This document shows positions 2,833 to 64,000 of a stretch of 64,000 nucleotides of DNA, in pieces. Under the pieces are notes generated by a model, which worked only from the letters and a program-made list of their open reading frames with translations, did no database searches and was not told where the DNA came from. How positions within the stretch are numbered: the first letter of the stretch is position 1; every line of letters starts with the position of its first letter. The position numbers and the translations under genes were made by a program. This DNA is from Saprospiraceae bacterium (lineage in GTDB: Bacteria > Bacteroidota > Bacteroidia > Chitinophagales > Saprospiraceae): contig JAEUUU010000175.1 in the NCBI GenBank assembly GCA_016787345.1, forward strand, positions 1 to 64,000, written 5' to 3'.

Positions 2833-3564
2833 TCAGAATCGGCTGGCAACATAATACGGCAGCATGGCGCGCCAGGTAGGCCAGTCGTGACGCATATCCG
2901 GGCCCCAGATGTCGAGTTCGTGGGGGATGCCTTTCGATGCCAGAATATTGGACAGTCGTTTCGAGGCTTCGGGGTCTTCGTAGTCGCCCGAACCGGTCAG
3001 AATATGCAGATGTCGGGCTTGTTGTAGCCTCGGCAGAAAATGTTCGTCGTTGAGCCCCGGCATGTAGTGGCAGGGCGAATTGAAATACACGTCTTCGTCA
3101 AAATAACCTTTTGTGTACGAAGTAAGGTCGTAAACACCCGACATGGCGATTGTGCCGTTGAACAAGTCGGGCCGGCGGAGGTACAGGTTGCAGGCATGCA
3201 GGGCGCCGAGCGAAGCGCCGGAGGTAATGATAGAGGTGTCGGCGCTGGTGTGCATCCGGATAAAGGGCACCACTTCCTCTTCCACGTAAGCATTGAACTG
3301 CTGGTGGCGGATCGCTTTGTGGCGCGGGTGCATGCGGTTGTTCAGCCAGGCCTCGGAGTTGATGCTGTTGATCGAAAATACTTTGACTTTGCCTGCTTCG
3401 ATATACGGTTCCAGTACGGAAATCAGGTGAAAGCGTTCGTATTCGAGGAAATCGGCGGCAGCTGTGGGCAACAGCAGCAATGCAAAGCCGAAATGGCCAT
3501 ACATGGCGATTTCCATGTTTTTGTTCAGTCGGGGAGAATACCACTGGTGGATTTCGCGATTCAT
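2833..3564 (-). CDS. Esterase-like alpha/beta hydrolase
   Basis: The 243-residue protein has the alpha/beta-hydrolase nucleophile elbow GASLG (Ser118), a later GSGDYEDP segment that can supply the acid, and RHDW near the C-terminus for the catalytic His. It resembles the enterochelin-esterase/Fes and putative-esterase family (DUF3089/esterase D-like). No signal peptide is seen, so a cytoplasmic location is likely. The frame stays open to 3657, but the upstream part has only a TTG start that lies inside the -7 promoter element at 3645-3652; the first ATG after it, at 3564, is therefore chosen, which leaves a leader of about 70 bases. The substrate is unknown. Confidence 0.75.
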   Translation of the reverse strand: MNREIHQWYSPRLNKNMEIAMYGHFGFALLLLPTAAADFLEYERFHLISVLEPYIEAGKVKVFSINSINSEAWLNNRMHPRHKAIRHQQFNAYVEEEVVPFIRMHTSADTSIITSGASLGALHACNLYLRRPDLFNGTIAMSGVYDLTSYTKGYFDEDVYFNSPCHYMPGLNDEHFLPRLQQARHLHILTGSGDYEDPEASKRLSNILASKGIPHELDIWGPDMRHDWPTWRAMLPYYVASRF

Positions 3565-61773: not shown

Positions 61774-62991
61774 TCATTCCATTCGTTCGATTACAATCGC
61801 ATAACCTTGCCCTACGCCGATACACATGGTACACAGGGCGTATCGGCCGCCGTTGCGCTGTAGTTGTCGCGCGGCAGCAAGGATAATGCGAGCCCCCGAC
61901 ATGCCCAGCGGATGCCCGAGTGCAATAGCGCCGCCGTTCTGATTGATTCTGGGGTCGTTGTCGGCTAAACCGAGGCGACGTGTGCAAGCCAGCACTTGGG
62001 CGGCAAACGCTTCATTCAGCTCGATGACGTCTACATCGTCCAGTTTTAGTCCCGCTTTGGCCAATGCCTTCTGCGATGCCGCCACCGGGCCAATGCCCAT
62101 GATGCGCGGCTCGACGCCAACAACGGCCGTACTCACCAGACGGGCCAGGGGGCGCAGATTGTGGCGATTCAGCGCCGCTTCGGACGCAATCAGCAGGGCG
62201 GCAGCACCGTCGTTCAGCCCTGAAGCATTGCCGGCCGTCACGGAGCCGTCTTTCTTAAAAGCTGGCTTGAGTTTGGCTAAAATATCAGGAGAGGTGCCTG
62301 GTTTTATAAATTCATCTGCTGAAAAAAGCACCGTTTCGCCCTTCGATTGTGGAATGGGCACCGGTGCGATTTCTTCGGCCAGAAGCCCTTCGGCACGGGC
62401 GCGGGTTGCTTTTTGCTGACTGGCAAATGCGAATTGATCCTGGTCTTCGCGGCTAATGCCGTCCAGATCAGCCAGATTTTCCGCTGTTTGCCCCATAGCA
62501 TCCGTGCCGTACATCTGCTGCATTTTGGGATTGATAAAACGCCAGCCAAAACTGGAGTCGTACATCTGGGCATCGGTACCGAAGGGTTTTGCACTTTTGC
62601 TGATGACGTATGGCCCCCGGGTCATGTTTTCCACCCCGCCCGCCAGGAAAAGATCGCCATCGCCACACTCGACAGCGCGTTTTGCGTGAATGGCCGCCGC
62701 CATACCACTGGCGCAAAGTCGATTGATGGTTTCGCCGGGGACCGACCAGGGCAAGCCTGCCAGTAAAAGCGCCATACGGGCGACATTCCGGTTGTCTTCT
62801 CCCGCCTGATTGGCGCAACCCATTATCACGTCGTCGATCAGTGCGGGATCGAGATTGGGATGACGCTGAATCAATTCGCGAAGAACATGCGCCGCCAGAT
62901 CGTCGGTACGAATGCCGGACAAACTGCCGCCAAAGTTTCCGATGGGCGTTCGTATGCCATCGACGAGATATGCTGATGTTAGAGTAGCCAT
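61774..62991 (-). CDS. Acetyl-CoA acyltransferase, 3-oxoadipyl-CoA thiolase-like
   Basis: The 405-residue thiolase has catalytic Cys93 (INRLCASG), ELNEAFAAQV, GHPLGMSGAR (catalytic His), and CIGVGQGYA with the second Cys. The opening IRTPIGNFGGSLSGIRTDDL and the CANQAGEDNRNVARMALLLA stretch are closer to PcaF/PaaJ (beta-ketoadipyl-CoA thiolases) than to FadA, suggesting aromatic acid or phenylacetate breakdown, though a general beta-oxidation role is possible. No other catabolic gene is near. It is divergent from the cysteine-leader gene, with a -7 box at 63018. Confidence 0.9.
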   Translation of the reverse strand: MATLTSAYLVDGIRTPIGNFGGSLSGIRTDDLAAHVLRELIQRHPNLDPALIDDVIMGCANQAGEDNRNVARMALLLAGLPWSVPGETINRLCASGMAAAIHAKRAVECGDGDLFLAGGVENMTRGPYVISKSAKPFGTDAQMYDSSFGWRFINPKMQQMYGTDAMGQTAENLADLDGISREDQDQFAFASQQKATRARAEGLLAEEIAPVPIPQSKGETVLFSADEFIKPGTSPDILAKLKPAFKKDGSVTAGNASGLNDGAAALLIASEAALNRHNLRPLARLVSTAVVGVEPRIMGIGPVAASQKALAKAGLKLDDVDVIELNEAFAAQVLACTRRLGLADNDPRINQNGGAIALGHPLGMSGARIILAAARQLQRNGGRYALCTMCIGVGQGYAIVIERME

Positions 62992-63025: not shown

Positions 63026-63134
63026 ATCCCCGCGGTTTGATAAGACGGAAGTTCGGAACGCGTTAAAAAATTGTATTTTTTTGCAACCCTTACTTGTCGA
63101 CTGCGTTAAAGCCATACATTCACTGCCGATAAAC

Positions 63135-63227
63135 ATGATGTCGCCCAATACTTTGCATATGACTTGTTGCTGTTGTTGTCTTTCCGCCCCGGAAAGGCGA
63201 TGCGGTTATTGGTCTACTGTGCTTTAA
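63135..63227 (+). CDS. Cysteine-run leader peptide of the serine acetyltransferase gene
   Basis: A 30-codon open frame starts at ATG 63135 (or the next ATG at 63138) and ends at TAA 63225-63227. It encodes MMSPNTLHMT, then five Cys in a row (codons TGT TGC TGT TGT TGT at 63165-63179), then LSAPERRCGYWSTVL. Five cysteine codons in succession are extremely rare. Directly after the run the sequence folds into competing hairpins, ending in a terminator before the serine O-acetyltransferase gene. The role proposed is translation-coupled sensing of Cys-tRNA; the peptide itself is probably unstable. No Shine-Dalgarno is evident, which is normal in Bacteroidota. Confidence 0.8.
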   Translation: MMSPNTLHMTCCCCCLSAPERRCGYWSTVL

Positions 63228-63290
63228 GTACAACGGCGCATTTGGTCATTCAACCGAAAACCCTTTCCCGACAATGTTCGTGAAAGGGTT
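63180..63290 (+). promoter_or_regulatory. Cysteine-responsive transcription attenuator
   Basis: Four segments form exclusive pairs. Segment 1, CTTTCC (63180-63185), directly follows the Cys codons. Segment 2, GGAAAGG (63191-63197), pairs with segment 1 across a 5-base loop. Segment 3, CCTTTCC (63262-63268), pairs perfectly with segment 2 (antiterminator). Segment 4, GAAAGGGTT (63282-63290), pairs with AACCCTTTC (63259-63267, overlapping segment 3) to form the terminator. A ribosome stalled at the Cys codons would cover segment 1 and free segment 2 to pair with 3, allowing read-through into the acetyltransferase gene. Confidence 0.78.
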
Positions 63291-63295
63291 TTTTT
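63259..63295 (+). terminator. Attenuator terminator upstream of serine O-acetyltransferase
   Basis: A perfect 9-bp stem (63259-63267 with 63282-63290) has a 14-base loop, followed by seven T in total from the stem end. It lies in the 5' leader, 14 bases before the start codon, where no full gene precedes it on this strand. Confidence 0.85.
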
Positions 63296-63308
63296 ATTTC
63301 CCTTGCTT

Positions 63309-64000
63309 ATGTTTTCCATTAGTCCGACACTCGATGCATTTTTTACCCGCCTGGACCAGGAAAGGGATCTTTTTTCCGTGCGAATACCTCCCAAAACCGA
63401 GGCGCAGCGCCTTGCCGACGGCTTATTCGAATTGCTTTTTCCGATCAATGAATCCGATCACTACCCGGCAGCCGTCCGATATGGCCATTTACGAAGCGAT
63501 TTGTTCAAATTATTGTCCGAATTGCTCGCGGGAAGAAACGATATAAGCGTGTTGGCAGACCGCTTTTTTGAACAATTGCCCGAAATACACCAGCAATTGC
63601 TGGAAGATGCTGCGGCGATCTTGCAGTTTGATCCTGCGGCTACATGTATGGAGGAGGTAGTAGCAACCTATCCTGGATTTTACGCTATCGCTAATTACCG
63701 GATTGCCAATTTGTTGCATCGTCTGGGTGTGCCGCTTTTGCCCAGGGTTTTCTCTGAATATGTGCACGGGAAGACGGGGATAGACATCCACCCCTCTGCG
63801 ACGATCGGCAGGTCTTTCTTTATCGACCACGGCACCGGGGTCGTGATTGGCGCGACTGCCGTGATTGGCAATCAGGTCAAAATCTATCAGGGGGTAACAT
63901 TGGGCGCCTTACAGGTCGACAAATCGCTGGCAAACACCAAACGACATCCTACCATCGAAGATAATTGCGTGTTGTACGCCAATTGTACCATTCTGGGCGG
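63309..64000 (+). CDS. cysE: Serine O-acetyltransferase (EpsC/CysE type), 5' part
   Basis: This enzyme acetylates serine with acetyl-CoA to give O-acetylserine, the direct precursor of cysteine. The visible 230 codons show an N-terminal helical part (DAFFTRLDQERDLFSVRIPP) and FYAIANYRIANLLHRLGVPL. Hexapeptide left-handed helix repeats follow: GIDIHPSATIGRSFFIDHGT, GVVIGATAVIGNQVKIYQGV, TLGALQVDKS, and HPTIEDNCVLYANCTILGG. His in DHGTG and in HPT are catalytic in the family. The gene runs off the right edge. Expression is predicted to depend on the Cys leader attenuator upstream. Confidence 0.95.
   Translation, partial: MFSISPTLDAFFTRLDQERDLFSVRIPPKTEAQRLADGLFELLFPINESDHYPAAVRYGHLRSDLFKLLSELLAGRNDISVLADRFFEQLPEIHQQLLEDAAAILQFDPAATCMEEVVATYPGFYAIANYRIANLLHRLGVPLLPRVFSEYVHGKTGIDIHPSATIGRSFFIDHGTGVVIGATAVIGNQVKIYQGVTLGALQVDKSLANTKRHPTIEDNCVLYANCTILG

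What the first reader, a model, noticed from the sequence alone, without database searches (positions are those of the whole stretch)
63135..63308. Poly-cysteine leader peptide and competing hairpins upstream of serine O-acetyltransferase: a cysteine attenuator
Seen: a 30-codon frame with five consecutive Cys codons (63165-63179); segment 1 CTTTCC directly after it; segment 2 GGAAAGG able to pair with segment 1 or with segment 3 CCTTTCC; and segment 3 overlapping the 5' arm of a perfect terminator stem with T-run, 14 bases before the start of a gene for the first dedicated step of cysteine synthesis. Known: trp/his-type attenuators use this 1:2, 2:3, 3:4 logic, and cysteine-run leader ORFs are described in mycobacterial sulfur genes. 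I know of no described case in Bacteroidota. Inference: low Cys-tRNA stalls the ribosome at the Cys run, covers segment 1, allows 2:3 pairing and read-through.
Basis: partly seen in the sequence, partly recalled or inferred. Interest (0 to 1): 0.93.

Follow-up and report, generated by a model that had tools for sequence, protein, structure and literature searches.

The report
Poly-cysteine attenuator for cysteine genes
In front of this bacterium's cysteine-making genes lies a short reading frame with five cysteine codons in a row followed by an RNA hairpin of the kind predicted to stop transcription; the same arrangement sits before many sulfur genes in related Bacteroidota, often twice in series, and it likely lets a ribosome that runs short of cysteine switch those genes on.

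Summary
Observation confirmed. The window has a 30-codon ORF (63135-63227) with Cys5 (63165-63179), segments 1/2/3 and a predicted intrinsic terminator (63257-63295), 13 nt before cysE, which cysK follows. It is not isolated. Cys4-7 leaders precede cysE in 16 of 19 examinable genomes of the genus. Covariance models made from such leaders led to the same unit before cysK, cysM-like, cysH, sulfite reductase, O-acetylhomoserine sulfhydrylase, peroxiredoxin and other genes, in this family and (some with only 2-3 Cys) in eight others; 25 tandem pairs were found. In 108 non-redundant units segment 2 pairs better with its own segment 3 than with those of other units (-16.0 against -11.3 kcal/mol; 0 of 20,000 permutations). 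Of 109 runs taken without asking for an ORF, 107 have an in-frame ATG in the Cys frame, 23 in the Leu frame. Best reading: trp-type, ribosome-sensed cysteine attenuation. Against: helix 1:2 is weakly supported, distribution is patchy (1 of 70 regions before cysE elsewhere in the family), and nothing was measured in cells. No Rfam family reaches its cut-off. Poly-Cys leaders are in print for Actinobacteria and Rhodobacterales cysS; my searches found none for Bacteroidota. New variant of a known kind.

The parts
63135..63227 (+). leader ORF, 30 codons plus stop: MMSPNTLHMTCCCCCLSAPERRCGYWSTVL
   Evidence: Cys frame opened by an in-frame ATG in 107 of 109 such runs
63165..63179 (+). five consecutive Cys codons, the predicted stall site
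   Evidence: Cys4-7 in 16 of 19 genomes of the genus
63180..63186 (+). segment 1 (CTTTCCG), can pair with 63190-63196
   Evidence: -7.9 kcal/mol hairpin; helix 1:2 weakly supported across units
63191..63197 (+). segment 2 (GGAAAGG), pairs with segment 1 or segment 3
63262..63268 (+). segment 3 (CCTTTCC), overlaps the 5' arm of the terminator
63257..63295 (+). predicted intrinsic terminator: arms 63257-63267 and 63282-63292 (segment 4), T-run 63289-63295
63309..64000 (+). cysE, serine O-acetyltransferase (continues to 64145 on the contig; cysK at 64178-65122 lies outside the window)
   Evidence: best NCBIfam match cysE, 156.4 bits full length, under its cut-off of 210.65; the next gene is CysK, 398.9 bits, over its cut-off of 350.95

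Best explanation
The leader of the cysE-cysK operon encodes a short peptide with five cysteines followed by RNA segments that can pair in mutually exclusive ways, and it likely works as a ribosome-sensed transcription attenuator that would raise expression when Cys-tRNA is short. Inferred steps: when cysteine is plentiful the ribosome reads through the Cys run, segment 2 is covered by it or re-pairs with segment 1, segment 3 pairs with segment 4, and RNA polymerase stops before cysE. When charged Cys-tRNA is short the ribosome stalls on the run and covers segment 1; segment 2 pairs with segment 3 before segment 4 is made, and transcription continues into cysE and cysK. Shown by comparison: the same kind of unit stands before many sulfur-assimilation genes of this genus and of other Bacteroidota, often two in series, so the window copy belongs to a widespread set.
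For: Conserved Cys4-7 leader plus terminator before cysE in 16 of 19 genomes of the genus. Only the Cys frame is kept open: ATG in 107 of 109, against 23 (Leu) and 6 (Val/Ala). Segments 2 and 3 change together: -16.03 own against -11.3 swapped, 0 of 20,000 permutations, 108 units; in the 22 cysE leaders found by protein anchor -15.05 against -12.96, 5 of 20,000; no effect for the 30 nt before the terminator or before the Cys run. Before segment 4 is made the terminator's 5' arm pairs to segment 2 in 105 of 108. The same unit precedes cysK, cysM-like, cysH, sulfite reductase, metY-type, peroxiredoxin and sulfur-transport genes: target genes fit cysteine.
Against: Nothing was measured in cells. 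At equilibrium the window's terminator beats the antiterminator (-33.5 against -27.8 kcal/mol), so the switch must be kinetic. Helix 1:2 is weak at single loci. Segment 2 read backwards also shows a small own-partner effect (-11.19 against -10.06, 0 of 5000), so part of the signal is composition, and relatedness of the sequences was not corrected for; swapped segment-2 windows still pair in 80-89 of 108. Patchy: absent before cysE in 3 of 19 genomes of the genus, in 69 of 70 regions elsewhere in the family, and before cysH in 24 of 30 Flavobacterium loci. No other Cys leader was found in the window's own genome. No TAnnTTTG promoter box in window 63040-63134.
Confidence: 0.85

Rival explanations
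1. Translational rather than transcriptional control: ribosome stalling on the poly-Cys ORF changes access to the cysE start, as reported for mycobacteria, and the hairpin works as a start-site block rather than a terminator.
For: Cysteine genes of M. smegmatis are said to be under translation attenuation (passage in PMC13236596). The terminator stem ends 17 nt before the cysE ATG.
Against: Stem followed by a T-run in the units collected (T-rich tail demanded by the detector, so partly by selection); in the first member of each of 25 tandem pairs the hairpin is followed by another leader, not by the gene.
Confidence: 0.08
2. The peptide itself is the product (a Cys-rich thiol or metal-binding peptide) and the hairpin is only a terminator behind it.
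For: The Cys frame is a real ORF with start and stop.
Against: Outside the Cys run the peptides share little, and segments 2 and 3 change together, which a peptide does not explain.
Confidence: 0.04
3. Metabolite-binding riboswitch or T-box with a chance ORF.
For: Structured leader with a terminator before a biosynthetic gene.
Against: No Rfam family at its gathering score in the window or, tRNA apart, in 20 related loci; with permissive settings only a PyrR match of 22.4 bits, far under its cut-off of 54. The Cys frame is kept open.
Confidence: 0.02
4. Chance Cys run beside an ordinary terminator.
For: TGY-x4 is common in this genome (92 hits).
Against: Conservation, frame and co-change tests; the neighbouring upstream gene runs on the other strand (61774-62991), so the terminator does not serve it.
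Confidence: 0.01

Closest known systems
trp/his-type ribosome-mediated transcription attenuators (recalled; named as a class in PMC8632094, passages)
   Same: Leader ORF with a run of codons for the pathway's product, competing antiterminator and terminator, intrinsic-type terminator before the first gene.
   Different: Cysteine as the sensed amino acid, Bacteroidota hosts, many operons, tandem units; helix 1:2 only weakly supported.
Poly-Cys leader ORFs of Actinobacteria (PMC1262725 section 6; Canestrari 2020, title only, seen in the reference list of PMC13236596)
   Same: Runs of Cys codons before cysteine genes.
   Different: The Actinobacteria paper reports no conserved terminator hairpins there; here a terminator and a matching antiterminator are present.
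uORFC-8-2 motif of Rhodobacterales cysS (PMC8632094, passages)
   Same: uORF with adjacent Cys codons and a terminator; stalling at the Cys codons proposed.
   Different: Two Cys codons, before cysteinyl-tRNA synthetase, in Alphaproteobacteria; here mostly 4-7 Cys (up to 11) before sulfur-assimilation genes, often in pairs.
Leader-peptide attenuation inferred in Flavobacterium psychrophilum (PMC9723704 section 19)
   Same: Same phylum, same general mechanism proposed from a transcriptome.
   Different: The text names no cysteine leader; its supplementary tables could not be read here.

Membership tests
trp-type ribosome-mediated transcription attenuator | leader ORF with codons for the amino acid made by the operon | tested here: met
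   Cys5 before cysE-cysK; Cys frame 107 of 109
trp-type ribosome-mediated transcription attenuator | predicted intrinsic terminator between leader ORF and gene | tested here: met
   63257-63295; present in all 16 genus leaders before cysE
trp-type ribosome-mediated transcription attenuator | antiterminator 2:3 exclusive with terminator 3:4 | tested here: met
   by computation only:
trp-type ribosome-mediated transcription attenuator | helix 1:2 that frees segment 3 | tested here: inconclusive
   mean z -1.1, se 0.12 over 108 units; weak at single cysE loci
trp-type ribosome-mediated transcription attenuator | leader is translated and read-through rises on starvation for that amino acid | not testable with these tools
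   needs expression data
Mycobacterial poly-Cys leaderless ORFs | transcript starts at the ORF's start codon | tested here: inconclusive
   no mapped 5' ends; a TAnnTTTG box lies a median 21 nt before the ATG in the 44 of 107 units that have one, none in the window
Mycobacterial poly-Cys leaderless ORFs | no conserved terminator hairpin (as in PMC1262725 section 6) | tested here: not met
   terminator present
uORFC-8-2 motif | upstream of cysS in Rhodobacterales | tested here: not met
   before cysE-cysK; the paper places the motif only in Rhodobacterales
Rfam cis-regulatory families (T-box, SAM riboswitches and others) | match at the Rfam gathering score | tested here: not met

The most novel reading that the evidence does not exclude
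Bacteroidota control much of cysteine and sulfur assimilation through a phylum-wide regulon of ribosome-sensed poly-Cys attenuators, with up to 11 Cys codons and often two complete attenuators in series before cysteine synthase, sulfite reductase or PAPS reductase, giving a steeper or two-step response to falling Cys-tRNA; this would mean that transcription and translation are coupled in this phylum.
Probability: 0.6. Interest if true: 0.85.

Novelty: new variant of a known kind. Interest (0 to 1): 0.77.

Why it matters
It would give a control system for cysteine and sulfur assimilation to a phylum where my searches found none described. The tandem pairs would be natural two-step switches. The mechanism needs a ribosome close behind RNA polymerase, so it makes transcription-translation coupling in Bacteroidota directly testable. 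The leader also flags candidate genes of cysteine homeostasis, such as an ATP-grasp ligase, DUF4395 proteins and odd PAPS-reductase relatives.

Tried and rejected
The TGY run as a detector by itself was dropped: it is common DNA, and five other TGY-x5 runs of the genome sit in other-frame open frames. Other Cys leaders in the window's own genome: none found around its one PAPS-reductase-family gene or its other five PALP-family genes, and the one further R1 hit that I fetched (G000:C109) has no Cys-run ORF. A family-wide cysE leader was looked for and not found (1 of 70 regions). Phylum CM hits were mostly bare terminators: 19 of 29 inspected loci had no Cys ORF with a terminator, and one of the ten others (L384) looks like chance. 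Of the 52 R1 hits inspected, 9 had no Cys-run ORF. A tRNA gene beside one cysH leader is tRNA-Lys, not Cys. A paper search on transcription-translation coupling in Bacteroidota gave nothing useful. Stop-codon position did not track helix 1:2 strength (correlation -0.14).

Full report
WHAT IS THERE. The window holds, on the plus strand, an ORF at 63135-63227 with five Cys codons at 63165-63179, then CTTTCC (63180-63185), GGAAAGG (63191-63197), a spacer of about 60 nt, and a predicted terminator with an 11-bp outer stem (63257-63267 / 63282-63292) and T7 (63289-63295). cysE begins at 63309. The 201-nt leader folds at -62.1 kcal/mol against a shuffle mean of -44.4 (z -4.6; 0 of 200). On the contig cysE ends at 64145 and cysK follows at 64178-65122. 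NCBIfam: the first gene's best match is cysE at 156.4 bits, under the cut-off of 210.65; the second is cysK at 398.9, over its cut-off of 350.95. The upstream gene (61774-62991, minus strand) points away.

CONSERVATION BEFORE cysE. Of 37 genomes of the genus, the own one included, 20 have a CysE match and 19 of these have readable upstream DNA (one contig ends too close). Sixteen of 19 carry a Cys4-7 leader plus terminator: G000, G003, G005, G006, G010, G012, G014, G015, G016, G021, G023, G025, G028, G031, G032, G034. G017, G029 and G030 do not. The peptides share little outside the Cys run. G017 and G029 instead carry the leader before a separate cysK. Elsewhere it is patchy: 1 of 70 regions (69 genera, three regions short) chosen from the 118 of 199 family genomes with a match; 6 of 80 named loci with a terminator (L028 and L030 Runella, L055, L060, L063 Flavobacterium suaedae, L077), plus L031 without one; and 2 of the 29 best-scoring loci of a phylum sample (L215 with Cys4; L230 with adjacent Cys2).

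A SET OF OPERONS. A covariance model from 15 cysE leaders (A1, R1) was searched in 42 genomes of the genus, and a second from 28 non-cysE units (A2, R2) in genus, family and phylum samples. Many hits of both are bare terminators; counts of genomes with any hit are therefore not used as evidence. Of 52 R1 hits that I picked for inspection 43 had a Cys-run ORF, as had all 14 loci inspected. Downstream genes there include cysE, cysK, cysM-like synthases, cysH, O-acetylhomoserine sulfhydrylase, 1-Cys peroxiredoxin and DUF4395 (representatives named by Pfam and NCBIfam). In the family all 28 fetched best hits (L337-L364) have at least one Cys4-or-longer leader with a terminator; 20 of the 28 stand before cysteine synthase or sulfite reductase genes. 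In the phylum sample 10 of 29 inspected loci have a Cys-rich leader with a terminator, eight of them before cysteine synthase or sulfite reductase genes; L390's gene was not resolved and L384 looks like chance. Families f20, f24, f29, f33, f36, f46, f50 and f54 besides f1 carry it, with only two or three adjacent Cys in f24, f36 and f50.

TANDEM UNITS. Twenty-five pairs of complete units lie in series, 143-257 nt between Cys runs, mostly before cysM-like, sulfite reductase or cysH/DUF4395 operons. A named example is Flavobacterium urocaniciphilum, with two leaders and two terminator hairpins before cysH. Of the 30 best Flavobacterium cysH loci (47 of 81 genomes have a match), 6 have a CC-type leader with a terminator upstream (one, L409, doubtful), three of them as pairs; reverse-strand control 1 of 30, downstream control 0 of 30.

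TESTS OF MECHANISM. Of 138 extracted units 123 have Cys4 or more, and 108 remain after removing near-duplicates; 81 of these were assigned by short recalled motifs to sulfur-related classes (cysM-like 24, cysE 17, cysH 15, cysI 11, cysK 5, metY 3, peroxiredoxin 3, ATP-grasp 2, DUF4395 1), 15 had no gene within reach and 12 fell outside the motifs. (a) Frame: in 109 TGY4-or-longer runs followed by a terminator and outside long ORFs, taken without asking for start or stop, an in-frame ATG opens the Cys frame in 107, the Leu frame in 23 and the Val/Ala frame in 6; a stop follows within 60 nt in 108, 64 and 66. (b) Co-change of segments 2 and 3: own -16.03, swapped -11.3, 0 of 20,000 permutations. 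For the 22 cysE leaders found by protein anchor: -15.05 against -12.96, 5 of 20,000; single loci are often not significant, the window's among them (45 of 300 shuffles as good). Controls before the terminator or before the Cys run give no effect; segment 2 read backwards gives a small one (-11.19 against -10.06, 0 of 5000), so some of the signal is composition. (c) Order of folding: with the Cys run plus 6 nt masked and arm 4 absent, the terminator's 5' arm pairs to segment 2 in 105 of 108; a slightly different count gave 106, against 31-47 with the middle shuffled and 80-89 with swapped windows. (d) Helix 1:2: mean z -1.1, se 0.12, 80% below zero, weak at single cysE loci. (e) Geometry: medians from the end of the Cys run are segment 2 +11.5 to +24, stop +39, terminator +73; a ribosome on the stop codon (assumed -15 to +15 nt) would overlap segment 2 in 61 of 108. 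(f) A TAnnTTTG box, the Bacteroidota -7 element (recalled), lies within 90 nt of the ATG in 44 of 107 units against 5.7% in shuffles; none in the window. Caveat: most of the 108 units came from models that contain the Cys run and terminator, so (a) and (c) are partly conditioned; the 22 cysE leaders are not. Relatedness was not corrected for.

MECHANISM. Cysteine-rich: the ribosome passes the Cys run, segment 2 is covered or re-pairs with 1, 3:4 forms, transcription stops. Cysteine-poor: the stalled ribosome covers segment 1, 2:3 forms before arm 4, RNA polymerase continues. In the window 2:3 is the minimum-energy fold before arm 4 is made (-24.1), while at equilibrium 3:4 wins (-33.5 against -27.8), so the choice would be kinetic. 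Stalling, coupling and the response are inferred.

KNOWN OR NEW. No Rfam family reaches its gathering score in the window or, tRNA apart, in 20 related loci; a permissive scan gave only sub-threshold matches. Poly-Cys leaders are in print for Actinobacteria without terminators (PMC1262725, section 6) and Cys-Cys leaders with a terminator for Rhodobacterales cysS (PMC8632094, passages). For Bacteroidota my searches turned up only a general statement of leader-peptide attenuation before amino-acid operons in F. psychrophilum (PMC9723704, section 19). Passages only were seen of PMC2965389, PMC4833913, PMC13236596 and PMC4974804. The library lacks most subscription papers and supplements could not be read, so an earlier report cannot be excluded. 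It works like a trp-type attenuator; as a family it is a new variant.

Noticed in passing
L087 about 7820 (uncultured Coprococcus MAG): A CCCCC leader (MYNDIKTIRENQNCCCCCMMDEFNTVSLSCVL) with a terminator directly before cysK in a Lachnospiraceae record, outside Bacteroidota.
   Followed up: partly
L341, L348, L355, L402, L406: Several leaders before sulfite reductase or cysH have Met codons beside the Cys run (MMCCCC, MMMCMCC), which might sense methionine as well.
   Followed up: no
L359, L364: Poly-Cys leaders before an ATP-grasp ligase with RimK-like and weak glutathione-synthetase-like Pfam matches, possibly a thiol-compound maker.
   Followed up: partly
L285, L286, L299, L327: Diverged PAPS-reductase-like proteins carry their own Cys leader; L285 matches PF01507 only weakly and L299 matches no Pfam family.
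   Followed up: partly
L291 (G009), reverse strand: One cluster holds peroxiredoxin, cysM-like, three genes that look like JAMM-type peptidase, small sulfur-carrier and ThiF-like proteins (recognised by eye, not searched), cysH and a GTPase-like start; it carries three Cys leaders.
   Followed up: no
L307 (G004:C463): A strong R2 match (75.3 bits) whose leader has only two Cys codons (HCCWPIRTTEV) stands before an acyl-CoA-thioesterase-like gene: a decayed or retargeted unit.
   Followed up: no
L010 (G029) and L013 (G017): cysE without the leader keeps a promoter-like stretch (AACCTTTTCTTTGG) seen also in L011 and L012: natural loss of the attenuator, while cysK keeps one.
   Followed up: partly
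window 3468-3479, minus strand: Another short ORF with four Cys codons (MAISALHCCCCPQLPPISSNTNAFT) but no terminator; probably chance.
   Followed up: yes
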